Source: Roseofilum halophilum BLCC-M91 (GTDB taxonomy: Bacteria > Cyanobacteriota > Cyanobacteriia > Cyanobacteriales > Desertifilaceae). From it: DNA of 46,492 nucleotides. Positions 6,337-20,927 of the stretch are shown one piece after another; the stretch's first letter is position 1; each line of letters opens with the position of its first letter. A program made the translations under genes and the position numbers. Location of the stretch: the NCBI RefSeq assembly GCF_030068445.1, contig NZ_JAQPOK010000081.1:1-46492 (forward strand). The letters are read 5' to 3'. Under the pieces are notes generated by a model. The model had not been told where the DNA came from. It was given only the letters and a program-made list of their open reading frames with translations, and searched no databases.

Positions 6337-6428
6337 TGCCCTCTCCCTATATCCCTCTCCCGTGGGAGAGGGACTTTCTCCCCTTCTCCTGCGGGAGAAG
6401 GGGCTGGGGAATGAGGGGCAACTGTTGA
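6337..6428. repeat. Dispersed palindromic repeat, copy 1
   Basis: Two adjacent hairpins (a CCCTCTCCC/GGGAGAGGG palindrome and a CCCCTTCTCC/GGGAGAAGGGG palindrome) followed by GAGGGGCAACTGTTGA. The same arrangement recurs at 25477-25593. It lies 31 bp upstream of the next gene's ATG and could form a stable RNA structure in that gene's leader. Confidence 0.85.
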
Positions 6429-6459
6429 AACGCTATATTTTTACATCAACCCTAATTTT

Positions 6460-7578
6460 ATGTCGATTCAACTTCGGACTGAAATTCTCAAATCCTACGG
6501 AGCAACCCCTTCAGAAGTGGAAGAACTTCTGAGCTATAATCAAAATATTTTTGACCATAGTCAACTCAATAACGTTCTTACGTTTCCCTTAGAACCGGAA
6601 TCTCATATTCTCACTTGGGAAACTTATCTGAGTGAATCTGAAAAAAATGGCGTATTTCCTATCCTAAAAGATAAACTCATTCAGTGGCAATTCCCCATTC
6701 AATCTGGCATTAGCAAAATGGAGAATTATCGTGCTGCAACTCGCAAAGGAAAAGCAACGGCTGACATGCCAGAAGCGACTGGATTAGTTTTGCAGGAACC
6801 AGAGAACTTAAAATTACAACTTTATGAAAATTTAGCCGGAAAAATTCCCGTTTTAAGGGTTGGATGTCGCCTAGATTTTGTCTCAATTATCCAAGCCTTA
6901 ACCAAGCGCAATGAACCCCAACCCATTCCTGATTCCATGGGAGCAATCATGATTGCTGGATATAATAATTGGGATCGAATTCGTGCCTATCGTCAAGCCT
7001 GGGAAGCTGAACAAAATCAACCGGTTACAGAAATGCAATGGAAACTTGAGTTTAAACGTCTGACTCCTCAAAAACACCTGTATCAAGACCGGTTTATTGT
7101 CCTGAGTTCCGGGGGATATAGTGGGGTGAGTGGGGCAGACATGGGAATGACAGAAGCCGAATGGTTGCAGGTTTCACGTCAGATTCGGTTGGCTCATGAA
7201 TGCACCCATTATTTTACCCGCAGGTTGTTGGGAGCAATGCGAAATAATTTGATGGATGAACTGATGGCAGACTATCAAGGGATTGTTGCCGGAACGGGTG
7301 GCAAGTATCGCGCAGATTGGTTTTTACGATTCTTGGGATTAGAAAATTTTCCCGACTATAGAGTGGGGGGACGTTTGGAAAATTATCGCGGCAATCCTGC
7401 CCTTTCTGAGGGTGCGTTTAAGGTGTTGCAGTCTTTGGTGAAAGATGCGGCAGAAAATCTAGAACGGTTTCATCTCAATCATGTTGAAGCGTTATCAACT
7501 CCAGCCGGACAAGGGCGTTTATTGATTGCGTTGAGTGAATTAACGCTGGAAGAAATAGTCATATCAGTCAATTGGTAG
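6460..7578 (+). CDS. Unrecognised protein with HExxH zinc-protease-like motif
   Basis: A 372-residue protein I cannot assign to a named family. It contains HECTH at residues 246-250, matching the HExxH metal-binding motif of zincin metallopeptidases, and a following acidic helix (MDELMADYQG, Asp266/Glu267) placed as a third ligand could be. The preceding helix RLAHECTHYFTRRLL is of the right amphipathic kind. There is no signal peptide or membrane segment. It is convergent with the halogenase gene, their stops lying 18 bp apart, so it probably is not in the same transcript as the peptide-modifying operon. It could be a neighbour by chance or a helper protease. The gene is preceded by the hairpin repeat at 6337-6428. 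Confidence 0.75.
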   Translation: MSIQLRTEILKSYGATPSEVEELLSYNQNIFDHSQLNNVLTFPLEPESHILTWETYLSESEKNGVFPILKDKLIQWQFPIQSGISKMENYRAATRKGKATADMPEATGLVLQEPENLKLQLYENLAGKIPVLRVGCRLDFVSIIQALTKRNEPQPIPDSMGAIMIAGYNNWDRIRAYRQAWEAEQNQPVTEMQWKLEFKRLTPQKHLYQDRFIVLSSGGYSGVSGADMGMTEAEWLQVSRQIRLAHECTHYFTRRLLGAMRNNLMDELMADYQGIVAGTGGKYRADWFLRFLGLENFPDYRVGGRLENYRGNPALSEGAFKVLQSLVKDAAENLERFHLNHVEALSTPAGQGRLLIALSELTLEEIVISVNW

Positions 7579-7596
7579 TAAGAACCAACCTACGGG

Positions 7597-8901
7597 CTAA
7601 AAGTAGCCAATTCCATAACCCATTTCTGCAAAACCAGAAGTTGTAAACATGCTAAAGTTTATGTCTTGATCTTCACATTGCTGGGAAGCAGCGACGACAA
7701 ATTCTTGATGTTGGGTCAAGGGGTGGGGGAGGTTTTTACCGAGTTGACAAAACTGCTCAAATTCATCTAGGAGTTGGGCATTGTCAAATTTCTTTAGCTC
7801 TGTTTGGTAGTTGGATTGGGCAAATTTCCAAAATTCGCTCTCAAATCTCGATCCCATGGAATAGTGCCAACCGATAAATAGGGAGGTTCGCATGAGATGA
7901 TTGAAGAGAATTTGATTAAAGCGTTGTAAATTGTCTGGCTTAAGTTTGGGTTTCTGGTGCTTGAGAACTAACTGACGTAGAGGCCAAACGGATAGCGATC
8001 GCATAAAAATTAAGATCCAGACGATCGCTGTGGCTTCGAGAGGTTCTAAAAATGACGCAGTATTGCCAATGCGGAACACTGCACCATCAAAAAATGAACG
8101 ACAGGTAAAGTTGGGGAATTTGAGCTGGCGTTCTTTAGCAACGGACGTTACGCCTTCGCTCTCTAGAAAACGATCGAAGTCCTCTTTTATGTCCTCAATA
8201 GGGGTAATTAGATGGTTATAGATGTAACCGTAGGAGGTGCGGTGAGTGAGAGGAATCATGAAAATCCAACCATGGGGACGGGCGATCGCTCTGGTGGCTG
8301 AGTTGTATTCCAACTGATGACCATTGATTTGAAGGTCAACAATACCGCCAGGAATAGCTGGACATTGGCGCACAAGAGCCGCATTGGTGGGGATAATATT
8401 CACCTTGATATGCTCATCCCCTAGAGTTTTCGGGAGTCCTCGTGCATCAATAACGAAGTCTACGTCTAAGTGAGTGCGATCGCTCAACTCAATCTTAGCC
8501 ACCATCCCATCGCTCTCCAGGGCAATGACTTTCTTATGAATGGAGGTTGCCGACACATACTTCCCCAGCAACTTCACAATTTCCTCAGAAGAAAGGTGAT
8601 AAGCATACTCCTCTCGCAGGGGACAAAAGTGATGAAAAAACGTTTGATTTTGCCTCCCCCAATTCTCAAACTTAATGCCATACTTACGAGTCATAAAACA
8701 TTGCTCGACTAACTCTAAGTCGCTTAAACCCGTAACCTCTTGTAACCAGTCCCGAAAAATAGCAGTCGTTCCTTCCCCAACCCCAATAATAGGAATATTC
8801 GGATCGTAAATGTGGTATAAATCAAACGTCGGAAAATATTTACTCAAGTGTGCAGCCGCAACAAAACCCGCCGTTCCACCACCAATAACTGCAATTTTCA
8901 T
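7597..8901 (-). CDS. Flavin-dependent tryptophan halogenase (RiPP tailoring)
   Basis: Enzymes of this family use FADH2, oxygen and chloride or bromide to halogenate the indole of tryptophan. The 434-residue protein has the FAD-binding GGGTAG near residue 7, the VGEGT block (41-45), the catalytic-lysine region GIKFENW with Lys77, and FLEPLEAT with Glu289 at the place of the family's second catalytic residue. The diagnostic WxWxIP motif appears as WIFMIP (from Trp212), with Phe for the second Trp. Ala290 replaces the usual Ser after the Glu. It is about 100 residues shorter than free-tryptophan halogenases, which fits a peptide substrate. It is last of four minus-strand genes (46 bp after the previous stop) opposite a Trp-containing precursor peptide. 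Halogenation of the core's Trp residues is my inference. Confidence 0.85.
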   Translation of the reverse strand: MKIAVIGGGTAGFVAAAHLSKYFPTFDLYHIYDPNIPIIGVGEGTTAIFRDWLQEVTGLSDLELVEQCFMTRKYGIKFENWGRQNQTFFHHFCPLREEYAYHLSSEEIVKLLGKYVSATSIHKKVIALESDGMVAKIELSDRTHLDVDFVIDARGLPKTLGDEHIKVNIIPTNAALVRQCPAIPGGIVDLQINGHQLEYNSATRAIARPHGWIFMIPLTHRTSYGYIYNHLITPIEDIKEDFDRFLESEGVTSVAKERQLKFPNFTCRSFFDGAVFRIGNTASFLEPLEATAIVWILIFMRSLSVWPLRQLVLKHQKPKLKPDNLQRFNQILFNHLMRTSLFIGWHYSMGSRFESEFWKFAQSNYQTELKKFDNAQLLDEFEQFCQLGKNLPHPLTQHQEFVVAASQQCEDQDINFSMFTTSGFAEMGYGIGYF

Positions 8902-8947
8902 AGCTGTTTACTCTGGTTTTACTCTCAAGTTTCTTGTTTTAAACACG

Positions 8948-9580
8948 CTATCGTTGATAATCGTGAGTCACAGATAAACATTCCTGTAAATTCACAACAC
9001 CATGATACATTCCTCCGGGTGTAAAAACAATATCTCCAGGCTCTGCTATTCCCGCAAGGACGCGATCTTTATCTGGAAAAAACCACCAGTATTTTGAACC
9101 ATAAATGCTCACATTCCACGCATGACAATCTTCAACATCGATATGAGCTTCCGTCATTGAAGAAGGTGGGCCGAGAAAAATCCATCGATATTTGTAAGGT
9201 TGATATGAGGCTTGTGCAAAGAAAGGGGGGATAGAATAATCTTCCTCTAAAAACCGATTTTCTTCAATGGGAATATCCCGAAGATAACTGGTTTTTCCAT
9301 TGGCAAAAGACAATTGAGGGAAATTGGCTAAATATTTCTTATAGTTGGCTATGCCCAATTTCTCAGTAATGAAGTTCCGATCCCATTTTTCAAACGCCTT
9401 CCAACCCAACGGAAAGTTTTTGATCATCACCGGAATCTCTTTTTGTTCATAGTTTTCAATAAAGTTCTCTATTGAAATCGATTCAACAACTTGAACCGGC
9501 TCATAAAGCTTTTGGCGATTGTCTTGTTTGCTTTTAATCAGTTTTTTTAAAGCTGATACGCTATCTAAATTTGCTGACAT
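8948..9580 (-). CDS. JmjC/cupin_8-type Fe(II)/2-oxoglutarate oxygenase
   Basis: The 210-residue protein (ATG at 9580; a TTG six codons upstream is possible) has the cupin_8/JmjC pattern. VMIKNFPLGWKAF is typical of the N-terminal part. The metal-binding triad is His146 and Asp148 (in EAHIDVEDCHAW) and His193 (in GGMYHGVVN). GSKYWWFFP lies between them, where JmjC hydroxylases carry a similar strand. Such enzymes hydroxylate side chains of proteins and, in several natural-product pathways, of peptides. It sits between the peptide-arginase homologue and the halogenase in the minus-strand operon. A hydroxylation on the core peptide is the likely job, but the target residue is unknown. Confidence 0.85.
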   Translation of the reverse strand: MSANLDSVSALKKLIKSKQDNRQKLYEPVQVVESISIENFIENYEQKEIPVMIKNFPLGWKAFEKWDRNFITEKLGIANYKKYLANFPQLSFANGKTSYLRDIPIEENRFLEEDYSIPPFFAQASYQPYKYRWIFLGPPSSMTEAHIDVEDCHAWNVSIYGSKYWWFFPDKDRVLAGIAEPGDIVFTPGGMYHGVVNLQECLSVTHDYQR

Positions 9581-9629
9581 GGTTATATCAATAAACAATT
9601 AAGAAGAATTATTTAAACTTACATCACGA

Positions 9630-10586
9630 TTATACAGCGCCTAGCAATGGATTTAAACCTTGCTCTTGCAACACTTTATCAATACTCATAGGGTTAATCT
9701 CATAGACTTCAGTCAGTTTCTCCAGTAAGGTCTTTTCAATGAATTGACATTGATCGTCAGGAGTATACCCACTAATTCGCGATCGACAGATACAAATTAT
9801 CTGGATCTCAACTTTGTGGGATAGCAAAAAGTCAATTAACTGTTCAATCCGATGGATAATTGTGTCTTCTGAAACTTTCAGTTGTCGATCAAAAGACTCA
9901 TCGGTGAAGGGATAATCATGAAATTGAATATAATATCGATTCTCTTCCACTTTAATAGAAAAACGGCTGCCATAAAAAATTCTTAAGAAGTGATATCGAT
10001 CTTGGATTAAGGATTCATACTGTTCTTGGGTGATTTCTAGGATTCCTTGGCCTTCAAACACTTGCTCATTGCAAGAAAAGTAATCTAAATCAATATCTAA
10101 GACTACCTTTTGATCTTCTGGAAACTCATCTGCCACTGTCAAATGTTGAATTTTGGCCAGTTTACAAGATGGATCTCCTAAGAATTTGATAATATTTTTC
10201 AGTCCCGTTTCTTCAGGTTTCAAGGGTTTGGCGACTAAAATATCCTGTTCTTCATTGGGGAAGTATATTTTATAAGTCCGCTTCTTTGTCGATAATTTAG
10301 GCGAGGGATGCCTGAGCCAATATTCTTCTTTAAATACTCCCTGATAGAGCGCTGGCACAATAAAGTTGGCGATATTGAGCTGATTGTAAGTAAACTGATA
10401 AACCTCTGACAGATTATGGGTGTTCAGATTACTTAGGGACTCCCTAAAACTCGGATAATTAAAGTCTGAATGTTCGTCTACGTGAAACAGAATATTATCC
10501 GATTTTGGCATTAAGTTTTGATCGATCGCATAATGCCAGACAAAGAAGGCTTCGTTGTGTTCTTCAAAGGTGAAAACTGGAATCAT
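9630..10586 (-). CDS. UPF0489 peptide arginase homologue (Arg to Orn in RiPP)
   Basis: The 318-residue protein is a UPF0489 member. Peptide arginases such as OspR of the landornamide pathway belong to this family; they hydrolyse arginine side chains in precursor peptides to ornithine plus urea. The two manganese-binding motifs of the ureohydrolase fold are intact: HVDEHSD at 35-41 (DxHxD type: Asp37, His39, Asp41) and DIDLDYF at 164-170 (Asp164, Asp166, Asp168). The block ICICRSRISGYTP near the end is also characteristic. It lies 19 bp after a paralogue fused to an oxygenase. The precursor's 13-residue core holds four Arg, a fitting substrate. Which Arg are converted cannot be read. The protein could act on another peptide, but the context makes that unlikely. 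Confidence 0.87.
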   Translation of the reverse strand: MIPVFTFEEHNEAFFVWHYAIDQNLMPKSDNILFHVDEHSDFNYPSFRESLSNLNTHNLSEVYQFTYNQLNIANFIVPALYQGVFKEEYWLRHPSPKLSTKKRTYKIYFPNEEQDILVAKPLKPEETGLKNIIKFLGDPSCKLAKIQHLTVADEFPEDQKVVLDIDLDYFSCNEQVFEGQGILEITQEQYESLIQDRYHFLRIFYGSRFSIKVEENRYYIQFHDYPFTDESFDRQLKVSEDTIIHRIEQLIDFLLSHKVEIQIICICRSRISGYTPDDQCQFIEKTLLEKLTEVYEINPMSIDKVLQEQGLNPLLGAV

Positions 10587-10605
10587 TATTAATTTTAATT
10601 AACGC

Positions 10606-11961
10606 TTATTTATTGAGATTAGGCGGTGGAAATTGGTAAGCGACTGTAACCCGTAGTTTATTACATAAACGACTGGGAGCGCAACCCCGATGGGGGATAG
10701 TATTATCAAAAATAATCACTCGTCCTGGTTTGGGGAGACAACTATAGATCAGATCGGCCTGACTCAAATCACGATGGCTATAAAACTTGGTTTCTCCATC
10801 CCAATCTGCTCTCCACATGGGATTTACATAACAAACTGCTGTCTGTCCTGGATTCTCTAAATTTTCTGAATCTCGATGAATACTATCTCCTAGTCCAAAA
10901 ACATGGCCATTGACAATAACTCTGGGATCGTCTGGTTTATAGTCGAGTTGTTCGGTAACTAATTCTCTGAGTCGATCGATACTGTCTGGAAATTCTTCTG
11001 TAGCCCAAAAAGAAGTCAATAGGTCGTTGTCATCTCCGTAGTTTTTAAATTCCCAACGCAAGCCGGATTGATAGTAGTTATAGATTTCTGTTAACAAGGC
11101 GTGAGGAATTAAGTTATCATAGACTCTTATTCTGCCAGACTCTACCTTGATTTCTGTGAGAGAGACGGAAGAAGAGCCTGTGGAGGATTGAGCCTTAGAT
11201 TCCAAGAGCTGCATGGAACTGACTATTTTTTGCTTCTGGTTCTGGTAAGCTGTTCTCAACTGGGTGTTTTCCCAAATTTCATCTAACGAGAGCCGTTGCA
11301 GGGGATAAATTTTGCTCAGACTTTCTACGAGATTTTCTTCAATCCATGGCCATCGATCGTCTCCCCCAAAGCTACTGATTTGGGAGCGACGAATACAAAT
11401 CAGTTTGGGATCAATCTGATTATGAGTTAAGAAATCAACCAATTCATCTATTTTCTTTAGCTTGTCTTCTGGATTAGCACCATTTGGATGGGGACTGAAG
11501 TAATCTGAGACAATATCCAACACTACACCGGGTTGCTCTGTGAATGTATCTTTTGTGGTTAGAGTCTGAAATTCTTGAAGTTTATATTTCGGTTTGATCA
11601 GCCATTGCAAAAATGTCTGGGAATCTATTTCTTCCTTGTGGAAGGTTTTGTAGGTGAGGATTTCTCTATTTTGAGAGGTATAAGTACAAACCCACAGGGA
11701 TTGAGAGAGCATTTCTTCATGGGGATATAGCCAATAAACCTCCTTAAACAAGCCTCGATGGATCGTGGGCACAAGGAAATGAGCGATAGATATTTCATGG
11801 GAATGAATATCATACAATGCTGCTAAATTGGGGTGATTATTTATATACCGATTGATGTGAAGGAGAGTGTTGCCTTCTTCAGAGATAAATTGTTTATGTA
11901 TAGCATAGTTCCATAGGATACAAGATTCTTTGCGGTCTTCAAAGATAATTGTGGGAATCAT
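10606..11961 (-). CDS. Degenerate UPF0489 domain fused to Fe(II)/2OG oxygenase
   Basis: The 451-residue protein starts with a UPF0489 domain (1 to about 245) that aligns almost residue for residue with the intact arginase encoded next to it: HFLVPTIHRGLFKEVYWL, VVLDIVSDYFS, ICIRRSQISSF. The metal motif is lost: DEHSD (37-41) is NRYIN here, and DIDLD is DIVSD (Asp149, Val151, Asp153). A block of about 65 residues is also missing. After a Ser-rich linker (about 245-275) comes a prolyl-hydroxylase-like oxygenase domain with an intact Fe triad His362, Asp364 and His424 and a 2-oxoglutarate-binding Arg near 436 (LRVTVAYQF). The likely role is a hydroxylase steered to the precursor by a catalytically dead arginase domain. 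ATG at 11961 is preferred over GTG at 11964 because it matches the paralogue's MIP start. It heads the minus-strand operon. Confidence 0.85.
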   Translation of the reverse strand: MIPTIIFEDRKESCILWNYAIHKQFISEEGNTLLHINRYINNHPNLAALYDIHSHEISIAHFLVPTIHRGLFKEVYWLYPHEEMLSQSLWVCTYTSQNREILTYKTFHKEEIDSQTFLQWLIKPKYKLQEFQTLTTKDTFTEQPGVVLDIVSDYFSPHPNGANPEDKLKKIDELVDFLTHNQIDPKLICIRRSQISSFGGDDRWPWIEENLVESLSKIYPLQRLSLDEIWENTQLRTAYQNQKQKIVSSMQLLESKAQSSTGSSSVSLTEIKVESGRIRVYDNLIPHALLTEIYNYYQSGLRWEFKNYGDDNDLLTSFWATEEFPDSIDRLRELVTEQLDYKPDDPRVIVNGHVFGLGDSIHRDSENLENPGQTAVCYVNPMWRADWDGETKFYSHRDLSQADLIYSCLPKPGRVIIFDNTIPHRGCAPSRLCNKLRVTVAYQFPPPNLNK

Positions 11962-12229
11962 CACTTTAAAACTCTTTAGTTATTTTCGTGAAAGTCTTCT
12001 TTAAGGTATATTCTGTGCTGATTTGGTATTAAGTTTAAGAAAAAGTAAACGATAGTAAATACTCACCTAGAGTAACTGACACAAGCACCCTAATTCTACA
12101 AATATTAACATTTTCTTAAGAAACATAAATAAAATATTAAAAAAAATAAATACTCTTGTCAATTCATAAGGAATCTAGTTATGATTGCGAGCAAAACCAC
12201 AGCAATTTTATAAATGGAGGTTTTGTACA
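11962..12229. promoter_or_regulatory. Divergent promoter region of the RiPP cluster
   Basis: A 268-bp, strongly AT-rich spacer between the tailoring operon (minus) and the precursor gene (plus). It contains a perfect 12-bp palindrome TTTCTTAAGAAA at 12112-12123 that could be an operator, A-rich stretches around 12125-12150, and a good sigma70-type promoter for the precursor (listed separately). Any shared regulator is not encoded next to it. Confidence 0.6.
12156..12185 (+). promoter_or_regulatory. Candidate promoter of the precursor peptide gene
   Basis: TTGTCA at 12156-12161 and TATGAT at 12180-12185 are near-consensus -35 and -10 hexamers with 18-bp spacing. They lie about 45 bp upstream of the precursor ATG, leaving a short leader that carries GGAGG at 12216-12220, the strongest ribosome binding site in this part of the window. 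Confidence 0.55.
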
Positions 12230-12502
12230 ATGTCAATTGAGTCACTGTCTAAGAAGATCGCGGAATCATCCGAGTGGTCTAAGAAAATGGAAGGTTGTGA
12301 GACTAATGAACAAGTGGTTGTCACTATCCTTAAAGGATCGGTAGAATTAGGTGAAGGGGACTTAACTGTTAGCGAGCTGGTAACCTTCATTGATAGTTTG
12401 AGTTCCGCAGACGATCAAGAGCTGGATGATGCGGAATTAGAAGCAGCAGCCGGTGGTGGCTGGGCCCGTCGTGCTTGGAGATCTGTTTCTAGAGTTTGGT
12501 AG
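12230..12502 (+). CDS. RiPP precursor peptide, Nif11-like leader, Arg/Trp core
   Basis: A 90-residue peptide starting MSIESLSKKIAESSEWSKKM, fixed by GGAGG nine bases before the ATG. Residues 1-74 are a helical, acidic leader. LTVSELVTFIDSLSSADDQ and DDAELEAAAGGG recall the end of Nif11-type leaders, where a double-glycine site follows an acidic ELxxxAGG segment. The glycines are at 75-77. The C-terminal 13 residues, WARRAWRSVSRVW (78-90), form the presumed core with four Arg, three Trp, two Ser, two Val and two Ala, and no Cys, so a lanthionine product is excluded. Genes around it encode an Arg-modifying enzyme, a Trp halogenase, oxygenases and a C39 exporter that cuts after GG. Assignment as precursor is strong. 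Leader subclass and the exact cleavage position (after Gly76 or Gly77) are less sure. Confidence 0.88.
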   Translation: MSIESLSKKIAESSEWSKKMEGCETNEQVVVTILKGSVELGEGDLTVSELVTFIDSLSSADDQELDDAELEAAAGGGWARRAWRSVSRVW

Positions 12503-12604
12503 TTGTATGGCCCTCAGCTTCTCTCTCCCATGGTAGAGGGCAGCTAAGGATGTACTTTATCTATTCGAGAAGGGCTAGATCGCTGAATCAATTGTAAATC
12601 TAAT

Positions 12605-12644
12605 ACAAGGTTTGTATCTTAATACTTAAAGATATAAACCTTGT
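12605..12644 (+). terminator. Strong hairpin between precursor and exporter genes
   Basis: A 16-bp inverted repeat (12605-12620 and 12629-12644, one G-U pair) with an 8-nt loop, followed by TAATTTTA. It lies about 100 bp after the precursor stop and 120 bp before the exporter start. It could be a partial terminator or an mRNA-stabilising end that lets the precursor be made in excess over the export proteins. The T-run is weak, so full termination is not certain. Confidence 0.6.
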
Positions 12645-12764
12645 TAATTTTAGGTTTGACGGAGAAACAGGGACTCAATACAATACAGTCAATCAATTTC
12701 CTTAATATTCTCCCAAAAGCGAATTAGGGAAATTGAGAAAATGACTCATGGTTTTTAATTAACA

Positions 12765-15458
12765 ATGAATCAAAACTCAACTACTCAAACCCTGATTCGA
12801 GGCAATGAACCGCTTCTTTTAAATGACCCTAATAAGGTTTGGCGGATCGAGTCAGGTGCAATGGTAGTTTTTGCTGTCGGTGTGGTAGATGGCGTGGCAC
12901 AAGGAGCGCGTCGTTACCTGTTTAGCGTGACAGCTAATGAGGTTCTATGGGGTCTAGCGGATGTAGGTCAAGTGCCTTATCAATTGGTGGCGATCGCCAT
13001 TGAAGAAACCGCCCTAAGTTCATGGAGTCTGAAGGATTTTCTCCAGCAAGGACAAGGAAATGGCGATCGCGCCCCCTCTCTTCAAGGGCACTTAGAACAG
13101 TGGAGATCTCGCCTCAACTCCCCCTTCACAAACACCCACAGTGCCTTTACCCCACCCACTCTAGAAAAGCTCGAATCAACCGCCGCACTTGCGTCCTATC
13201 TCGACCAACTGCACCAAGATTTTCTCCATAGCTTAGACCAACTCGAACAGGAAGAACTAGCGGATAAGCTCACCCAATTTCAAGAGCGCCAACGCCTCAA
13301 TCAAAACACTCAACGCAGTAGTATCGGCGATCTCGTTTCCATCCTCAAACCCAAACAAGCCGAATTTCTGCAAGAAGGAACCCCTCTGTTGGTGGCTGCG
13401 GGGGCAGTGGGAAGAGCCATAGGACTGGAAATTCGCCCCCCGGCACACTCAGAAAATACGGAGCGGACAAAAAACCCCCTAGATGCCATCGCCCGCGCCT
13501 CCGGTATTCGCATTCGTCGCGTCTTATTGAGCGATCGCTGGTGGGAAAAAGACTGTGGCGCTATCCTCGCCTATACCCAAGAAAACCAACATCCCGTGGC
13601 ACTCCTCCCTGGAAAACGGGGGGGTTACGACCTCTTCGATCCCGTTGCCGAAACCCGCACTCCCATCACTCGCGCTCTTGCCTTCCAACTCGATCCCGTC
13701 GCCTACACCTTTTATCGACCGTTCCCCGATAAACATCTCAACTTCCTGGAACTGTTGAGATTTTCCCTACGCGGTTTAAGTCTAGATGTAATCACCATCG
13801 TGCTGATGGGCATTCTCGCCTCCTTAGTGGGAATGGTGGTTCCCCAAGCCACTGGTATCCTGATGGATCAAGCCATTCCCGATGCCAACCGCAGCCTAGT
13901 TTGGCAAATTGGACTTGCTCTCTTAGCGGCTAGTTTTGGTAAAGCCATTTTCGAGTTAGCCCAGGGGTTTGCCATTCTGCGAACCCAAGCCCTATTCAAC
14001 TTCGCCAACCAAGCGGCGCTCTGGGATCGGTTGCTGAAGCTGCGGATGTCTTTCTTTCGCCAGTATGCGACTGGGGACTTAATGGATCGAGCCACCGCCT
14101 TCGATCAGATGCGACAACTGCTGACGGCGAATGTGATGCGATCGCTCTTTACGGGCGTATTTTCCCTGCTGAATTTGGGCTTGATGCTGTTGTATAGCGT
14201 ACCCCTCACCCTAGCGGCTGCGGCGATCGCGATCGCCAACATTATCGTCACCCTCATCGTCAGCAACATCACCCGCAAAAAAATGCAACCTTTGCAACAA
14301 ATTCAAGGAGAAATCTTTGGATTAACCGTCCAACTCATTGGTGGTGTTTCCAAACTCAAAATTGCCGGAGCAGAAAAGCGGGGCTTTGCCTACTGGACAA
14401 AAAAATATAGAGAACAACTGATGTTAACCCTTAGTACCGAGGGCGTTGAAGATGCCATAAACCTCTTTAATACCCTCTTACCCACAGTTAGTTCAATTAT
14501 CATCTTTACCGTAGCCTTTCAACTAATTAACACCGCCCAAGCCCAAGGTCAACCTGGACTCTCAACCGGAAAATTTCTAGCCTTTAATGCCGCCTTTACC
14601 ATTTTGATTACCGGTCTCACAAGCCTCAGCGATACTCTGATTCAAGTTCTAGAAGTTTCCGTTCTCTGGGAACGAACCCAACCCATTTTACAAGCCATTC
14701 CAGAAGTCGATCTTTCCAAAGCAGATCCGGGAAAACTCAACGGCGATGTAAAACTCGACCGCGTCACCTTCCGTTACCGAGAAGATGGCCCTCTGATTCT
14801 CAACGAAGTCACCATCGAAGCCAAAGCCGGAGAATTTATTGCCCTGGTGGGGCCTTCCGGAAGTGGCAAATCTACCACGATTCGTTTACTTCTAGGATTT
14901 GAAACCCCAGAAGACGGAACCGTATATTATGACGGTCAAGATTTAAGCGGTTTAGACATTTCTGCTATTCGCCGACAATTGGGAGTCGTTTTGCAAGGAG
15001 GACGCATTAATACCGGTTCAATTTTCGAGAATATTTCTAGTGGTGCATTAGTCACCATGGATGAAGTTTGGGAAGCCGCACAAATGGCCGGATTTGCCGA
15101 AGATGTGGAAAAAATGCCCATGGGAATGCATACCGTAATTTCTGAGGGTGGCGGTAATCTTTCCGGAGGACAACGCCAACGATTACTGATTGCTCGTTCC
15201 CTAGTTTTAAATCCCAAAATTCTCATTTTTGATGAAGCTACCAGTGCCTTAGATAACCGCACCCAAGCCATTGTCAGTCAAAGTTTAGATAGTCTCGATG
15301 TCACTCGGATTGTGATTGCTCACCGTCTGAGTACCATTGTCAATGCCGATCGCATCTATGTGATTGAATCGGGTTTTGTGGTGCAACAAGGAACCTTTAA
15401 CGAACTCGCCGCACAACCCGGTTTGTTCGCGCAATTGATGGCTAGACAAATGGCATGA
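12765..15458 (+). CDS. NHLP-type bacteriocin export ABC permease/ATPase
   Basis: The 897-residue protein matches the NHLP bacteriocin export permease/ATPase class, which partners a separate C39-containing exporter. It has a long N-terminal cytoplasmic region (1 to about 320) including a segment WWEKDCGAILAY and FDPVAETRTPI. An ABC transmembrane domain follows (about 330-620), then an ATPase with Walker A GPSGSGKST (about 695-703), signature LSGGQRQR (about 797-804), Walker B ILIFDEATSALD and switch His in VIAHRLS. It lacks a complete C39 catalytic set, so cleavage must come from the exporter at 18440. It is the first of four plus-strand export genes behind the precursor. Confidence 0.88.
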   Translation: MNQNSTTQTLIRGNEPLLLNDPNKVWRIESGAMVVFAVGVVDGVAQGARRYLFSVTANEVLWGLADVGQVPYQLVAIAIEETALSSWSLKDFLQQGQGNGDRAPSLQGHLEQWRSRLNSPFTNTHSAFTPPTLEKLESTAALASYLDQLHQDFLHSLDQLEQEELADKLTQFQERQRLNQNTQRSSIGDLVSILKPKQAEFLQEGTPLLVAAGAVGRAIGLEIRPPAHSENTERTKNPLDAIARASGIRIRRVLLSDRWWEKDCGAILAYTQENQHPVALLPGKRGGYDLFDPVAETRTPITRALAFQLDPVAYTFYRPFPDKHLNFLELLRFSLRGLSLDVITIVLMGILASLVGMVVPQATGILMDQAIPDANRSLVWQIGLALLAASFGKAIFELAQGFAILRTQALFNFANQAALWDRLLKLRMSFFRQYATGDLMDRATAFDQMRQLLTANVMRSLFTGVFSLLNLGLMLLYSVPLTLAAAAIAIANIIVTLIVSNITRKKMQPLQQIQGEIFGLTVQLIGGVSKLKIAGAEKRGFAYWTKKYREQLMLTLSTEGVEDAINLFNTLLPTVSSIIIFTVAFQLINTAQAQGQPGLSTGKFLAFNAAFTILITGLTSLSDTLIQVLEVSVLWERTQPILQAIPEVDLSKADPGKLNGDVKLDRVTFRYREDGPLILNEVTIEAKAGEFIALVGPSGSGKSTTIRLLLGFETPEDGTVYYDGQDLSGLDISAIRRQLGVVLQGGRINTGSIFENISSGALVTMDEVWEAAQMAGFAEDVEKMPMGMHTVISEGGGNLSGGQRQRLLIARSLVLNPKILIFDEATSALDNRTQAIVSQSLDSLDVTRIVIAHRLSTIVNADRIYVIESGFVVQQGTFNELAAQPGLFAQLMARQMA

Positions 15459-15464
15459 TTTAGG

Positions 15465-15620
15465 AAGGCAAAAGTCAAAAGGCAAGAGGCAATAGCTTGG
15501 ATAGCTTAGGATCTAAGGCTTCAAGCTGTACCTCATAGAAGAGAAAATCGCTATAAATCCCTAACCCTCCCTCTTGCCTTTTCCCCCTTTTGCCTCTTGC
15601 CTTTTCCCCCCTTTTGCCTT
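15465..15620. repeat. Long inverted repeat of AGGCAAA/TTTGCCT type
   Basis: The left arm, 28 bp at 15465-15492, and the right arm, 31 bp at 15590-15620, are almost perfect inverted copies built from AAGGCAAAAG and GGCAAGAGG units. They enclose about 97 bp of unique sequence. The structure fills the gap between the first exporter gene and the cyclic-nucleotide-binding gene and ends seven bases before the latter's ATG. It probably folds in the mRNA and may reduce read-through or translation. Confidence 0.75.
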
Positions 15621-15626
15621 AAAACT

Positions 15627-16652
15627 ATGAAACAAACCATCGCCCAATTTCCTTATTTTGAAGTCCTCAAATCCCAGGATATTGATTGGATCGTGTCCCA
15701 ATCAGCCTCAGAGGACTGTCAACCCGGAACGGTTCTGATTCAACAAGGTTCTTCTGTTGAATCGATCTATTTGTCCTTATCTGGAACGTTAGCGGTTACC
15801 GTATCTGGAGAACAGCAAGCGGAACAAGAACTGAAACAACTCCATGAGGGAGAAATGATGGGAGAAATGTCTTTTTTAGACAATCATCCCCCTTCAGCAA
15901 CGATTAAAGTGGTTGAACCCTCGAAAGTGCTGTCGATTTCTAAACAAAAGTTAGCGCGAAAGTTGGACAGTGATGGAGATTTTGCGGCTCGATTTTATCA
16001 TTTGTTAGCTTTAAAGCTCTCCGGTCAGTTGCGGGGACTCTCCAATTTATTAACTCACACAGAAGCCACAGCCGCAAGTCAGCCTTTACGCAAAGTTTTG
16101 TTGGTGTTTTCGATTTTAACCGATCGCGACATTTCCTGGGCGATCGCCAATGGCACATCGCAAAAAGTCACCCCCGGAACGACTCTGATTGAACAGGGAA
16201 AGCCCGTACCTGCGGTGTATATTCTTCTCGAAGGCAACCTCGGTATCTATATTTCCTTATCCGATAATGGACGCAACCGCGAGAAACAAGTCGCCAATTC
16301 CTTTAAGGGGGAAATCCTAGGAGAGATGTCCTTTGTAGAAACGGGAATGGCTTCAGCAACGGTAAAAGCGGCGGAAAAATCTTGGGTACTGGCGATCGAT
16401 CAACCGAAACTAGCGGCTAAACTAGAACAGGATCGCGGGTTTGCAGCTCGGTTTTATCGGGCGATCGCCATTGTACTCTCGAATAGATGGCGCGATCGCC
16501 TCTTCCGTCGAGGGTTTGCTACCCTAGAGAGCGAGCAAACTGACCTCTTATCCGAAGATATTGAAGCTGAAGATGAACTCGATCTCGATGTCATTGACGG
16601 AACAGCGATCGCCGGAACCCGCTTTGATTGGATGATTCGGCAACTGCGTTAG
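15627..16652 (+). CDS. Tandem cyclic-nucleotide-binding-domain protein
   Basis: The 341-residue protein (ATG at 15627; an earlier TTG lies inside low-complexity repeat) has two copies of the CRP-type cyclic-nucleotide-binding fold. Copy 1 has GTVLIQQGSSVESIYLSLSG and GEMMGEMSFLDNHPPSATIKV (to about residue 145). Copy 2 has GTTLIEQGKPVPAVYILLEG and GEILGEMSFVETGMASATVKA. No DNA-binding domain follows, so it is not a transcription factor of CRP type. The usual phosphate-binding Arg of cAMP receptors is not seen where expected (it reads PPSAT and MASAT), so binding of a cyclic nucleotide is doubtful. I recall similar proteins within other cyanobacterial NHLP export loci, so a role in the export complex is plausible. 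Confidence 0.8.
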   Translation: MKQTIAQFPYFEVLKSQDIDWIVSQSASEDCQPGTVLIQQGSSVESIYLSLSGTLAVTVSGEQQAEQELKQLHEGEMMGEMSFLDNHPPSATIKVVEPSKVLSISKQKLARKLDSDGDFAARFYHLLALKLSGQLRGLSNLLTHTEATAASQPLRKVLLVFSILTDRDISWAIANGTSQKVTPGTTLIEQGKPVPAVYILLEGNLGIYISLSDNGRNREKQVANSFKGEILGEMSFVETGMASATVKAAEKSWVLAIDQPKLAAKLEQDRGFAARFYRAIAIVLSNRWRDRLFRRGFATLESEQTDLLSEDIEAEDELDLDVIDGTAIAGTRFDWMIRQLR

Positions 16653-16720
16653 GTAATCATAAATGATGGGTGCATCTATTATAAAAATTATTAATTGTTA
16701 ATTGTTAATTATGAATTGTT

Positions 16721-18343
16721 ATGCCTAGTCAAGAAAAAGATTCAAAATCGAGTATTTTTCGCCAAGAATCTTTAGATCAACTTTCCTCTCCAGAACGACT
16801 CGATCAGCTCATGCAAGTAGTGAGTCCCAAAGACTGGCTACCTTTAACAGTTTTGGGAAGTTTAGTCTTTATTGGGTTAGTTTGGAGTGTGTTCGGACGC
16901 ATCCCCATTACCGTTCAAGGTAAAGGAATTCTCATCGATCCTCGCCGCATTGTTGATTTCCAATCTCCCATTTCTGGACAACTTGAATCCTTGCATGTCG
17001 AACCAGGCGAATGTGTCGAGAAAAATACTCTTTTAGCCACCATTAACCCCTCAGAACTACGAAATAAACTGGCATTAGCACAAACGAAAAAAGCAGAATT
17101 AGAAGAGCAATATAACCAAACGGCTCTGATCCTCAATCAAAAAAATAGCCGAGAGCGAGAGGAGATCGCCGCTTCTAGAGCCAGTATTCAACAGCGCCTG
17201 AGCGATACCCAAGCCGTTACTCCCCTGCTCAAAGAGCGCGGTTTAGACTCCATTGCCCAGCAGCGAGAGAGCTTGCAGGAACAGTTAGCCAATACGCAAA
17301 ACCTCAGCCCCATCCTCAAAGATACAGTGTTAGAGGCGATCGAGGAACAACGTCAGAGCGTGCAACAGCGCCTCGATAATGCCAGAGAACTCGCTCCCGT
17401 TTTAGAAGACAGACTGCAAAAGCGTCAAGAATTAGTCATCGAAGGGGCGATCGAAGAAGATTCCGTATTAGACGCTAAACAAGCCTATATCGGAGCTTTA
17501 GAAAGTATTTCCGAACTCGAAGCCCAACTGAAAAATCTCGATGTTCAAGAAGCCGATGCTAGACGACAATCTGTAGATAATCTCAGTCAAGTGAGCAATC
17601 TACAAGCCCAAATCAAAGGACTAGAAGTTCAAGAAACGGAAGCAGAAAAGCGGTATCTAGATAATATCAATGAAGTGGGAAAACTTGCCACCGAACTGCA
17701 AGAATTAGAAACTAGAGAAAAGCGTTTAGAGCAAGAAAACCTTGAACAACTCAATACCAAACGCAATCAAATTCAGGAAGTAGCGCGGGAGATTATTCAA
17801 CTCGAACAACAGATTGCTGAAAAGAGTGAAATTCTCAGCCCTAACTCAGGTTGTATTCTAGAAACGACCGTGACAACTGGGCAAGTGGTATCAACAGGAA
17901 CTCGCTTGGGCGCAATGAATATGAGGGGAGCAGAGGGCAATATGATTGGCATTACTTACTTTGCGCTTAAAGATGGTAAAAAAATCAAACCCGGAATGCC
18001 GATTCAAATCACGCCAGATATTGTTAAACAACAGCGTTATGGTGGAATTGTCGGCACAATTACATCCGTTTCCGATTTTGCCGTCACCGAAGCGGGAGCA
18101 ACCACCATTGTGGGTAATTCAGATGTAGTTAAGGGATTAATGTCTAGTGGTGGCGTGATAGAAATCAGGGCAGAATTACAAGAAAATGAGGATAACTTTA
18201 GTGGCTATCAATGGTCTTCTTCCCAAGGGCCAAACCTGGACATTACTCCAGGAACGACGGCAACGGCTAGAGTGAGGGTAGAGGAGCGATCGCCGATTAC
18301 TTTCGTCTTACCCATTTTACGGGAATGGACAGGAGTGTATTAA
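16721..18343 (+). CDS. HlyD-type adaptor of the NHLP peptide export system
   Basis: A 540-residue membrane fusion protein that would bridge the inner-membrane exporter and the outer membrane. A short N-terminal cytoplasmic part is followed by one membrane segment (about 40-58, LPLTVLGSLVFIGLVWSVFG). A biotinyl-lipoyl-like half with SPISGQLESLHVEPGECV comes next. A long heptad-rich coiled coil (about 120-380) has repeated QQRLxxxxxLxPxL units. The second half-motif and a beta-barrel region with GMPIQITPDIV end the protein. It follows the tandem cyclic-nucleotide-binding gene and precedes the C39 exporter, a standard arrangement for type I-like peptide export. Confidence 0.87.
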   Translation: MPSQEKDSKSSIFRQESLDQLSSPERLDQLMQVVSPKDWLPLTVLGSLVFIGLVWSVFGRIPITVQGKGILIDPRRIVDFQSPISGQLESLHVEPGECVEKNTLLATINPSELRNKLALAQTKKAELEEQYNQTALILNQKNSREREEIAASRASIQQRLSDTQAVTPLLKERGLDSIAQQRESLQEQLANTQNLSPILKDTVLEAIEEQRQSVQQRLDNARELAPVLEDRLQKRQELVIEGAIEEDSVLDAKQAYIGALESISELEAQLKNLDVQEADARRQSVDNLSQVSNLQAQIKGLEVQETEAEKRYLDNINEVGKLATELQELETREKRLEQENLEQLNTKRNQIQEVAREIIQLEQQIAEKSEILSPNSGCILETTVTTGQVVSTGTRLGAMNMRGAEGNMIGITYFALKDGKKIKPGMPIQITPDIVKQQRYGGIVGTITSVSDFAVTEAGATTIVGNSDVVKGLMSSGGVIEIRAELQENEDNFSGYQWSSSQGPNLDITPGTTATARVRVEERSPITFVLPILREWTGVY

Positions 18344-18439
18344 ATGATCTCAAATCCGGAAAATCAGTTACACTATGTCATTAAATACCATGATTTCCAA
18401 TTTTTCCTAGTCAGTTTCTAAATATTCATATTACCGATT

Positions 18440-20647
18440 ATGACCCAAGCAACTCAGGAAAAAGAAAAGAAAGAGAAAACCTATAAGCGGGTGAAAACGC
18501 CGACCGTGCTGCAAATGGAAGGGGTTGAATGTGGAGCGGCTTCTTTAAGTATTATTTTAAGTTACTACGGCCGGATTGTTCCTTTACCCGAACTGCGAAT
18601 TACTTGTGGGGTTTCTCGTGATGGCAGTAATGCTGCGAATGTAGTTAAAGCAGCTAGAACCTATGGAATGCAAGCGAAGGGATTTAAGAAAGATCCCATG
18701 AAGCTTAAAGATGTGAAGCCTCCTTTCATTGTGTTTTGGAATTTTAATCACTTCCTGGTTGTTGAAGGATTTGTTAAAGATGAAGTGTATTTAAACGATC
18801 CCATGGATGGGCCAAGGAAAATCTCGTTTGAGGAATTCGATCGCGCCTATACGGGGATTGTCTTGATCATGGAACCGGGGCCGGACTTCAAAAAAGGGGG
18901 GCGAAAACCCAGCATGGTTGCTGCTTTATATAACCGCCTCAATGGTTCTTTGGGAGCGATTTTATACTGCATTTTAGCAGGTCTTCTGCTCGTGATTCCT
19001 GGGTTAGCCGTCGCCGTTTTTAGTCAAGTCTTTGTGGATAATATTCTGGTGGAAAACCGCATGGAATGGCTGCGGCCGCTGATTTTGGGGATGATTTTAA
19101 CGGCGATCGTCCAAGGAATGCTCTCCCTACTACAATTTCGGTATCTCAGACATTTGCAGATTAAGCTTTCGGTCACCATGTCCGGTAATTTCCTGTGGCA
19201 TGTTTTACGATTACCCCAGAGATTTTATGCACAAAGGTTTGCCGGTGAAATCGGCGATCGCGTCAACTTGAATACCAAAGTCGCCAATATTCTCTCTGGT
19301 GAGTTAGCGAAAACCGTCATTGATGCCATGGTTGTCGTCTTTTACGCGGTAGTTATGCTCGCCTATGACTGGGTACTCACCCTCATTGGCATCTTCTTTT
19401 CCGCCGTAAATGTCATAGTTTTGCAGTGGGTAGCACGGCGACGCAAAGATACCCACAGCCGCTTAACGCAAGATGAAGGTAAACTAGCCGGTGTCAGTAT
19501 TGCTGCCTTGCAAAGTATCGAAACCCTCAAATCTGCGGCCCTAGAATCCGACTTTTTTGCCCGTTGGAGTGGATATTACGCCAAAACCACCAATGCCCAA
19601 CAAACATTAGGCGTTCCCGATCAAATATTAGGAATTCTCCCTTCTCTTGTCACCTCTTTAACCACCTTATTTTTGCTGGTTGTCGGTGGCTTTCGAGTTA
19701 TGAGAGGCGAATTAAGTATCGGGATGTTAGTCGCATTTCAAAGCTTAATGACCAGCTTTCAACAACCCGTTAGCACCCTGGTTCAATTTGGTTCTACCCT
19801 GCAAGAATTAGAAGGCGATATTAACCGTTTAGATGATGTCCTCGATAACGAAGTCGATGCCCAAGTTGCCCAAGAGAACAAAAATCAGAAGGCTCTTCAA
19901 GTTTATGCCCATACTTCCTACAAACTACAAGGATATCTAGAACTGCAAAATTTAACCTTTGGCTATGCAAAAGTTAATCCCCCATTAGTCGAAGATTTGA
20001 GTTTAAAACTCCAACCCGGACAGCGCGTTGCCCTAGTCGGAGGCAGTGGTTCAGGAAAATCAACTGTTGCTAAATTAGTGGCTGGACTCTATGAACCTTG
20101 GTCAGGTGAAATTCTGTTAGACAGTATTCCCAGAGGCGATATTCCCAGAGAAGTATTAACCAATTCTCTATCCATGGTGGAACAAGATATTTTCTTATTT
20201 GGTGGTACAGTCCGAGATAATCTCACCCTTTGGGATAGTACCATTCCCAATTCCCAATTAATTCGAGCTTGTGAAGATGCCAAAATTTTGGATGCCGTTT
20301 TAGCCATTCCTGGAGGACTCGACGGGAGTTTATTGGAAGGCGCAGGAAATTTAAGTGGAGGCCAGCGCCAGCGTTTAGAAATTGCCCGTGCTTTAGTCAA
20401 CGATCCCTCCCTTTTAGTGATGGATGAAGCGACCAGTGCGTTAGATGCAGAAACGGAGAAAATTATCGACCAAAATTTGCGTCGCCGAGGTTGCACCTGT
20501 TTGATTGTAGCTCACCGCTTGAGTACGATTCGCGATTGTGATGAGATTATTGTTTTAGAACAAGGAAAAGTAGTACAACGTGGAACTCATGAGGAAATGA
20601 AACAGGATGAAGATAGTGTTTATGCTCGATTAATTCAATCGGAGTGA
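18440..20647 (+). CDS. C39-peptidase ABC exporter (leader removal and export)
   Basis: The 735-residue protein combines three parts. The N-terminal C39 cysteine peptidase domain (about 15-145) has catalytic Cys31 in QMEGVECGAAS and the His in FNHFLVVEGF, followed by LNDPMDGPR. The ABC transmembrane domain spans about 165-470. The ATPase has Walker A GGSGSGKST (about 533-541), signature LSGGQRQRLEIARAL (about 638) and Walker B LLVMDEATSALD. C39 exporters cut precursor leaders after a double glycine and export the core, which fits the glycine motif at residues 75-77 of the precursor at 12230. It ends the cluster. Confidence 0.92.
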   Translation: MTQATQEKEKKEKTYKRVKTPTVLQMEGVECGAASLSIILSYYGRIVPLPELRITCGVSRDGSNAANVVKAARTYGMQAKGFKKDPMKLKDVKPPFIVFWNFNHFLVVEGFVKDEVYLNDPMDGPRKISFEEFDRAYTGIVLIMEPGPDFKKGGRKPSMVAALYNRLNGSLGAILYCILAGLLLVIPGLAVAVFSQVFVDNILVENRMEWLRPLILGMILTAIVQGMLSLLQFRYLRHLQIKLSVTMSGNFLWHVLRLPQRFYAQRFAGEIGDRVNLNTKVANILSGELAKTVIDAMVVVFYAVVMLAYDWVLTLIGIFFSAVNVIVLQWVARRRKDTHSRLTQDEGKLAGVSIAALQSIETLKSAALESDFFARWSGYYAKTTNAQQTLGVPDQILGILPSLVTSLTTLFLLVVGGFRVMRGELSIGMLVAFQSLMTSFQQPVSTLVQFGSTLQELEGDINRLDDVLDNEVDAQVAQENKNQKALQVYAHTSYKLQGYLELQNLTFGYAKVNPPLVEDLSLKLQPGQRVALVGGSGSGKSTVAKLVAGLYEPWSGEILLDSIPRGDIPREVLTNSLSMVEQDIFLFGGTVRDNLTLWDSTIPNSQLIRACEDAKILDAVLAIPGGLDGSLLEGAGNLSGGQRQRLEIARALVNDPSLLVMDEATSALDAETEKIIDQNLRRRGCTCLIVAHRLSTIRDCDEIIVLEQGKVVQRGTHEEMKQDEDSVYARLIQSE

Positions 20648-20785
20648 GTTGAAAATATCGCGATCGTATTCTGTATGTGTACCAATCCAAAACCAGTAAA
20701 CAAGTATTTATCTTAGAGTATTTAAAATTGACAGCCATTTTACTGTAGTGCCGTGACACAGCTAAAATGAGGCTATAGATGTAGT

Positions 20786-20920
20786 GCGAGCATCTTGCTC
20801 GCTTCCTTTCTCTAGCGAGCAAGATGTTCGCATTCTTTTCTCTAGCGAGCAAGAGGCTCGCTTCCTTTCTCTAGCGAGCAAGATGCTCGCATTCCTTTCT
20901 CTAGCGAGCAAGAGGCTCGC
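20786..20920. repeat. Five tandem copies of a 17-bp palindrome
   Basis: Units at 20786, 20815, 20845, 20874 and 20904 each read GCGAGCAAGATGCTCGC or a close variant (the first is in opposite orientation) and are separated by a nearly constant 12-13 bp TTCCTTTCTCTA spacer, giving a period of 29-30 bp. The last unit ends seven bases before the methyltransferase ATG. Related palindromes occur at 46321-46443. Spacers are conserved, so this is not a CRISPR array. Confidence 0.9.
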
Positions 20921-20927
20921 ATTCCTA

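What the first reader, a model, noticed from the sequence alone, without database searches (positions are those of the whole stretch)
7597..20647. Complete, probably undescribed RiPP cluster: arginase, Trp halogenase and two oxygenases on an Arg/Trp-rich core
Seen: a 90-residue precursor with a GGG motif and core WARRAWRSVSRVW; four divergent tailoring genes (degenerate arginase fused to an oxygenase, intact UPF0489 arginase, JmjC-type oxygenase, flavin halogenase); and a four-gene NHLP export set with a C39 peptidase. Known: UPF0489 members such as OspR turn peptide Arg into ornithine, flavin halogenases act on Trp (some on peptides), and C39 exporters cut after GG. Inference: the product is an exported peptide with ornithine, halo-tryptophan and hydroxyl groups. 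I know of no described cluster with this exact combination, but I could not search for one.
Basis: partly seen in the sequence, partly recalled or inferred. Interest (0 to 1): 0.96.

Follow-up and report, generated by a model that had tools for sequence, protein, structure and literature searches.

The report
Cyanobacterial ornithine-and-halogen peptide gene cluster
A cyanobacterium carries a complete, self-contained set of genes that most likely makes and exports a short peptide in which arginines become ornithine and a tryptophan gains a halogen, closely related to a partly studied Moorena pathway but without its ring-forming enzyme and with an extra oxygenase.

Summary
In detail: precursor, four tailoring genes and four NHLP export genes are at the stated coordinates. 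The reading is partly right. The arginase keeps all six OspR metal ligands; the halogenase keeps the catalytic lysine and is 62% identical to what I take to be MppI, a demonstrated leader-dependent peptidyl-Trp brominase. But arginase plus halogenase on a Nif11-like precursor is published: the Moorena mpp cluster (PMC11791876). A Moorena genome held here has that core and the same pseudo-arginase/oxygenase fusion. The window cluster is a variant without lanthionine synthetase and with a JMJD6-like oxygenase. New here: arginase and halogenase co-occur in 5 of 388 genomes of the order; the fusion's arginase half has lost five of six ligands yet is under purifying selection; a congener lacking the halogenase also lacks the terminal Trp; another congener has an empty site, showing a 14.5 kb block that includes DUF7005, an HExxH protein. 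Best guess: an exported linear peptide with ornithine, bromo-Trp and perhaps hydroxy-ornithine. No chemistry was tested.

The parts
6343..20860 (.). Whole 14.5 kb block present in the window and, at the same site, in G005; absent, with a clean empty site, in congener G004
   Evidence: blastn of G004 C154 maps its single junction to window 6342 and 20861-20892; the CYTH and SpoU methylase matches lie 19 nt apart in G004
6460..7578 (+). DUF7005 protein (PF22541), 372 aa, HE[CS]TH plus downstream Glu; candidate metallopeptidase or HExxH oxygenase linked to NHLM export
   Evidence: Pfam E 9.6e-160; motif in 11 of 11 aligned; within 12 kb of an NHLM_ABC1 in 8 of 13 genomes that have it; inside the presence/absence block
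7597..8901 (-). Flavin-dependent tryptophan halogenase, 434 aa, Lys73, nearest to the Moorena MppI-type enzyme
   Evidence: Pfam E 1.1e-53; 62% to the Moorena homologue; Lys73 and PLEAT kept, grouped with the Moorena enzyme (support 95); PDB relatives are tryptophan halogenases
8948..9580 (-). JmjC/cupin-8 2OG-Fe(II) oxygenase, JMJD6-like, HxD...H intact
   Evidence: Pfam E 5.6e-11; profile to JMJD6 E 4.2e-25; conserved in the window, G005 and G003
9630..10586 (-). Peptide arginase (PF12640), 318 aa, six of six metal ligands
   Evidence: profile A2 (arginases and fusions) to 8brp (OspR) E 3.5e-76; ligand table
11257..11961 (-). Pseudo-arginase half of the fusion, one of six metal ligands left
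   Evidence: ligand table; Foldseek to OspR 8brp E 3.4e-15; dN/dS 0.18 against G005
10618..11136 (-). 2OG-Fe(II) oxygenase half of the fusion (FlmC-like), HRD...H and RxT intact
   Evidence: Pfam E 4e-07; NCBIfam FlmC 68.8 bits, cut-off 240; residues invariant in four fusions
12230..12502 (+). Precursor peptide, 90 aa, Nif11-like leader with L(x)4L (L65-L70)
12458..12499 (+). Predicted core GWARRAWRSVSRVW (14 residues if cut after GG; 13 after GGG)
   Evidence: GG at the same distance from the leader Leu in five aligned precursors; C39 exporter
12605..12644 (+). Terminator-like 16-pair hairpin between precursor and export genes
   Evidence: consensus scan only
12765..15458 (+). NHLM_ABC2 export permease/ATPase
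   Evidence: TIGR03797 982 bits, cut-off 709
15597..16652 (+). Cyclic-nucleotide-binding bacteriocin transport-associated protein
   Evidence: TIGR03896 298 bits, cut-off 161
16721..18343 (+). NHLM HlyD-type adaptor
   Evidence: TIGR03794 348 bits, cut-off 156
18440..20647 (+). NHLM_ABC1 exporter with C39 double-glycine peptidase
   Evidence: TIGR03796 1156 bits, cut-off 853; Peptidase_C39 E 1.2e-34

Best explanation
A complete RiPP cluster of the mpp type without a lanthionine synthetase. Leader-guided enzymes act on the 90-residue precursor: the intact arginase hydrolyses core arginines to ornithine; the halogenase adds a halogen (probably Br) to a core tryptophan, most likely a terminal one; the fused 2OG oxygenase, docked to the same substrate through its dead arginase half, probably hydroxylates an ornithine; the JmjC enzyme adds a second oxidation. 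The C39 domain of NHLM_ABC1 cuts after Gly-Gly and the NHLM system exports a linear peptide of about 14 residues. Shown here: genes, kept or lost catalytic residues, conservation, co-occurrence, boundaries. Inferred from characterised relatives: Arg to Orn, Trp halogenation, GG cleavage. Hypothesis only: the oxygenase targets and the role of the dead arginase half.
For: Intact arginase with 6/6 ligands and the three family motifs. Halogenase Lys73 aligns with the Moorena residue corresponding to MppI Lys73, whose alanine mutation abolished bromination. Arginase and halogenase found in 10 and 9 of 388 genomes, 5 shared, on one contig in all five (hypergeometric 4e-7, and 1.3e-4 leaving out the window's genus). 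Ten of 18 leader-type ORFs in nine halogenase loci end exactly in Trp and 16 of 18 have Trp in the core; 0 of 4 in six arginase-only loci end in Trp. G003, without the halogenase, has a core ending YFR. Trp-Arg is invariant in the five aligned precursors and its Arg is the only Arg of the Moorena core. In phaeornamide, PhaR and then the Fe(II)/alpha-ketoglutarate hydroxylase PhaI give 4-hydroxyornithine (PMC9505594, passages).
Against: No product, expression or enzyme assay. MppI brominates Trp80 of ACWRWSG, a Trp followed by Arg, so the inner Trp6 may be the site; but G003 keeps that Trp without a halogenase. Eight of 18 halogenase-linked ORFs do not end in Trp and two of them (in G489) have no core Trp; three of the four arginase-only precursors do contain a Trp. 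The second Trp of WxWxIP is Phe, as it is in the Moorena homologue. The precursor scores below the Nif11 cut-off. The oxygenase half modelled poorly. The FlmR paper's main text has no mention of an oxygenase, so FlmC's role rests on the NCBIfam name. The hypergeometric P values treat genomes as independent.
Confidence: 0.78

Rival explanations
1. The flavoprotein is not a halogenase but a peptidyl-tryptophan monooxygenase like QhpG, so the product carries hydroxy-Trp instead of halo-Trp.
For: It is short (434 aa), its best NCBIfam match is QhpG though weak (26.9 bits, cut-off 240), and WxWxIP reads WIFMIP.
Against: It is 62% identical to the Moorena enzyme in the locus with the published MppE core, which has the same WIF.IP; Lys73 is kept; the paper shows MppI brominating.
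Confidence: 0.07
2. The fused oxygenase and the JmjC enzyme act on residues other than ornithine, such as Trp, Val or Ser, or on arginine before or instead of ornithine formation.
For: No direct data on either target. JmjC has no match in the Moorena cluster, so it may act on something particular to the window lineage. JMJD5, a weaker PDB relative, is annotated as an arginyl hydroxylase.
Against: The fused oxygenase is physically joined to an arginase-derived domain and weakly resembles the FlmC family; hydroxyornithine made by arginase plus hydroxylase is precedented.
Confidence: 0.4
3. The dead arginase half of the fusion is a decaying relic with no role.
For: Five of six ligands are lost in the window, G005 and G003, and the domain is shorter than an arginase.
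Against: dN/dS 0.18 against G005 and a Foldseek match to OspR; the four fusions form one clade, so the fusion has persisted since before the split from Moorena (support 99).
Confidence: 0.12
4. The arginase and halogenase act on other substrates and the neighbouring precursor is exported unmodified.
For: Enzyme-substrate pairing is inferred only from neighbourhood.
Against: Recurring pairing with Arg/Trp precursors, conserved order in G005, and absence of the terminal Trp where the halogenase is absent.
Confidence: 0.03

Closest known systems
mpp cluster of Moorena producens (MppE, MppI, MppM; PMC11791876)
   Same: Nif11-like precursor, halogenase, arginases; in the Moorena MAG G049, which I take for the same pathway, the halogenase is 62% identical and the same intact arginase and pseudo-arginase/oxygenase fusion are present
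   Different: [quoted passage not shown] G049 has no JmjC match in the cluster and no DUF7005. The window has JmjC, DUF7005, a C39 exporter and a Cys-free Arg/Trp core
SrpI/SrpE peptidyl brominase (PMC10858898, passages)
   Same: Leader-dependent bromination of a C-terminal Trp after a GG leader with L(x)4L
   Different: SrpE is a proteusin (nitrile-hydratase-type leader); its sequence was not compared; no arginase appears in the passages read
OspR/landornamide and FlmR/OhkR peptide arginases (PMC12703449; PDB 8BRP)
   Same: Motifs, ligands and fold of the intact arginase
   Different: Other precursors; no halogenase found in G168, the genome with the OspR-like sequence; FlmR/OhkR NCBIfam cut-off not reached
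phaeornamide (PhaR plus PhaI; PMC9505594, passages)
   Same: Arginase followed by a 2OG hydroxylase giving 4-hydroxyornithine
   Different: Proteusin lanthipeptide with fatty acylation; PhaI sequence not compared

Membership tests
[quoted passage not shown]
   9630-10586: DEHSD, EEHNEAF, LDIDLDYFSC; 6/6
Pfam12640 peptide arginases | Same features in the N-terminal half of the fusion | tested here: not met
   RNYNVD, 1/6 ligands; a homologue, not a functional member
FlmR/OhkR subfamily (NF052474) | Score at least 350 bits | tested here: not met
   267.1 bits
Peptidyl flavin-dependent halogenases (MppI/SrpI) | Trp_halogenase domain with the catalytic Lys | tested here: met
   183 bits, cut-off 21; Lys73
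Peptidyl flavin-dependent halogenases (MppI/SrpI) | Halogenates a leader-bearing precursor | not testable with these tools
   needs co-expression
Nif11-type RiPP precursors (TIGR03798) | Score at least 32.3 bits | tested here: not met
   17.4 bits, E 0.004; called Nif11-like by resemblance only
NHLM/NHLP export system | ABC1 with C39, ABC2, HlyD above cut-offs | tested here: met
Class II lanthipeptides | LanM in the cluster and Cys in the core | tested here: not met
   no LANC_like or DUF4135 match among 20 proteins scanned by Pfam of 40 ORFs of 100 aa or more; the 20 not scanned are at most 449 aa; core has no Cys
JmjC 2OG oxygenases | HxD...H iron ligands | tested here: met
   H146, D148, H193 invariant in three sequences, aligned to JMJD6
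Selidamides | GNAT acyltransferase in the cluster | tested here: not met
   no GNAT domain among the ten proteins scanned; one acetyltransferase-model hit of the export-associated protein lies in its cyclic-nucleotide-binding part

The most novel reading that the evidence does not exclude
The catalytically dead arginase has been turned into a substrate-docking module that carries the fused 2OG oxygenase to the same leader or to the active arginase (as a heterodimer), so that Arg is converted to Orn and then to hydroxy-Orn in one complex: a retired maturase working as a recognition domain in place of an RRE. The Moorena copy with four of six ligands is an intermediate of that path.
Probability: 0.4. 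Interest if true: 0.75.

Novelty: new variant of a known kind. Interest (0 to 1): 0.56.

Why it matters
It gives a substrate with no Cys, hence no thioether ring, on which ornithine formation, Trp halogenation and oxidation can be studied together, with natural controls: a congener with the other enzymes but no halogenase and no terminal Trp, and a Moorena relative whose core has a single Arg. It points to a fused pseudo-arginase as a possible new way of recognising RiPP substrates. In the parts read of the mpp papers the arginases are named but not assayed, and the fusion is not mentioned.

Tried and rejected
Considered and dropped: lanthipeptide (no LanM, no Cys); proteusin (no nitrile hydratase leader match for the precursor at E up to 1); selidamide (no GNAT); a peptide arginase in G042 (its UPF0489 hit is a divergent UPF0489-TPR protein, so the overlap of 3 genomes in the phylum survey is really 2 with peptide arginases, and the P of 4e-6 printed is not used). 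G179's halogenase (29% identical) was left out of the precursor counts, and so was G093's UPF0489 hit. In one search two regex hits with core KTK in L068 were left out of the 18 as chance. No precursor was found in L069, L086 or L087, two of which are short contigs. The DUF7005 model is confident (pLDDT 90.9) but Foldseek gave no PDB match at E 0.001 or less. The fusion model has pLDDT under 50 from residue 245 on. The one genome-contig scan returned only Moorena. The NHLM_ABC1 of G003 lies on another contig.

Papers: PMC12703449 parts 1-3 of 5 plus passages; PMC11791876 parts 1-2 of 3; passages only of PMC7876137, PMC10858898, PMC12615548, PMC9505594, PMC12715784, PMC12455567, PMC12636437; PMC10028609 listing and start of abstract only. 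What QhpG does is from PMC7876137 passages and the abstract start.
Full report
The observation. The window is a whole 46,492-base contig of a 4.85 Mb assembly in 169 contigs; relatives named later are cyanobacteria. On the minus strand, 19-49 nt apart and so probably one operon, lie a tryptophan-halogenase-family flavoprotein, a JmjC oxygenase, an intact UPF0489 arginase and a fusion of a degenerate UPF0489 domain with a 2OG-Fe(II) oxygenase. Divergently lie the 90-residue precursor and four NHLM export genes, one with a C39 peptidase. A 16-pair terminator-like hairpin follows the precursor (consensus scan only).

Boundaries. In congener G004 the CYTH gene and the SpoU methylase gene that flank the block in the window are adjacent. 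BLASTN places the junction at window 6342 and 20861-20892. So about 14.5 kb, from DUF7005 to NHLM_ABC1, is one presence/absence unit. G005 has it at the same site. G003 has a related cluster on a different contig from its CYTH and SpoU genes, without the halogenase and with ABC1 on yet another contig. G001, G002 and G004 gave no match to the fusion. I cannot say whether gain or loss explains each case. I saw no direct repeat at the two ends in one repeat scan and did not search for an integrase.

Relatives. Of 59 genomes of the relatives set (own included), four have the fusion. G005 has the full set with two precursors, cores (G)WARRSWRRASRGTW and (G)WARRAWRGVSRVW. G003 has JmjC, arginase and fusion, core (A)HTIRRGARRGWRGTTRGARRYFR. 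Core, 77-residue leader and LanM/halogenase/arginase content match the published mpp cluster; that the two are the same pathway is my inference. The paper reports that MppI brominates Trp80, needs the leader and Lys73, and gives no chlorination; it calls mppA and mppB arginases and does not mention a fusion in the parts read.

Arginase and pseudo-arginase. All 11 intact arginases aligned keep six of six OspR ligands; the fusions keep one of six in the window, G005 and G003 and four of six in Moorena. The four fusions form one clade (support 99). With the OspR-type arginases (support 100) taken as the outside group, the fusions are sister to the window-type and Moorena arginases (support 84): a duplication older than the split of these lineages. 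Against G005, dN/dS is 0.18 for the dead half, 0.10 for the oxygenase half, 0.32 for the linker, 0.11 for the intact arginase, 0.10 for the halogenase and 0.16 for JmjC (one pair of genomes). The predicted fold of the fusion has three PDB matches at E 0.001 or less, all chains of OspR 8brp (best 3e-15); the oxygenase part is not modelled well.

Halogenase and tryptophan. Phylum sample: PF12640 in 5 of 386 genomes and the halogenase in 4 of 386. Order sample: halogenase in 9 of 388 and peptide arginase (fusion profile A1, E 1e-10 or less) in 10 of 388, both in 5, with the genes on one contig in all five. Outside the window's genus, 3 shared of 7 and 7 in 382 (P 1.3e-4). Nine halogenase loci held 18 leader-type ORFs by a regular expression: 10 end in Trp (window 1, G005 2, G042 4, G656 1, G489 2), and 16 have a core Trp. 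Those not ending in Trp are Moorena 1, G560 2, G556 3 and two in G489, which also lack Trp; G542 gave none. Six arginase-only loci gave four precursors, none ending in Trp, three with a Trp inside. The window was the starting point, so it and its close relative are not independent evidence. Trp-Arg is invariant in the five aligned precursors of the fusion-bearing loci; G003 keeps it without a halogenase, so I favour a terminal Trp as the halogen site and this Arg as the arginase/oxygenase site. Both are hypotheses, and MppI, which acts on the Trp of a Trp-Arg pair, argues the other way.

JmjC. The profile of three JmjC proteins finds JMJD6 first (E 4e-25) and JMJD5 weakly. Among 16 other genomes with and without these clusters, strong matches occur only in G003 and G005, plus one weak match on another contig of G049. 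Within that sample it is the lineage-specific addition.

DUF7005. Found in 13 of 59 relatives; in 8 of the 13 it lies within 12 kb of an NHLM_ABC1, often beside the cyclic-nucleotide-binding gene (by BLAST, by eye). Of the other five, G003 has it beside the rest of its exporter genes, G011 has both on different contigs, and G007, G008 and G009 gave no ABC1 at E 1e-150. HE[CS]TH and a downstream Glu are invariant in 11 of 11. HExxH proteins in RiPP clusters include alpha-ketoglutarate oxygenases as well as proteases (PMC12636437, passages), so its reaction is open. The confident model has no significant Foldseek match, and no held paper names it.

Conclusion. A real, complete and evidently maintained RiPP block, a variant of the mpp type without the ring-forming enzyme. 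Its main chemistry can be forecast with good confidence from characterised relatives; the pseudo-arginase/oxygenase fusion and the JmjC enzyme are the parts that could surprise.

Noticed in passing
window 6460-7578: DUF7005 (PF22541) is a conserved HExxH protein that tracks with NHLM exporters in many of these cyanobacteria; no held paper names it and its predicted fold has no significant PDB match.
   Followed up: partly
L035 13679-15299 and L067 7320-7595: A second type of halogenase cluster (G042, G656): five leader-type precursors, all five ending in Trp, near the halogenase; in L035 an FAD_binding_4 oxidase lies between; no peptide arginase.
   Followed up: partly
L070 42-6656 and L069 9254-13268: Halogenase next to a peptide arginase and one or two proteins that, by eye, share their C-terminal end with the gene before OspR in L037 (9157-10650); cores in L070 (G)WALADRRRWVAWG and WRGFSRRYWIGF.
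   Followed up: partly
L068 11211-12106: Two precursors ending IGW and IDW beside a halogenase and a 985-residue protein of LanM size, with no arginase match.
   Followed up: no
window 20786-20933: Tandem palindromic repeats (GCGAGCAAGATGCTCGC type) at the right edge of the 14.5 kb block.
   Followed up: no
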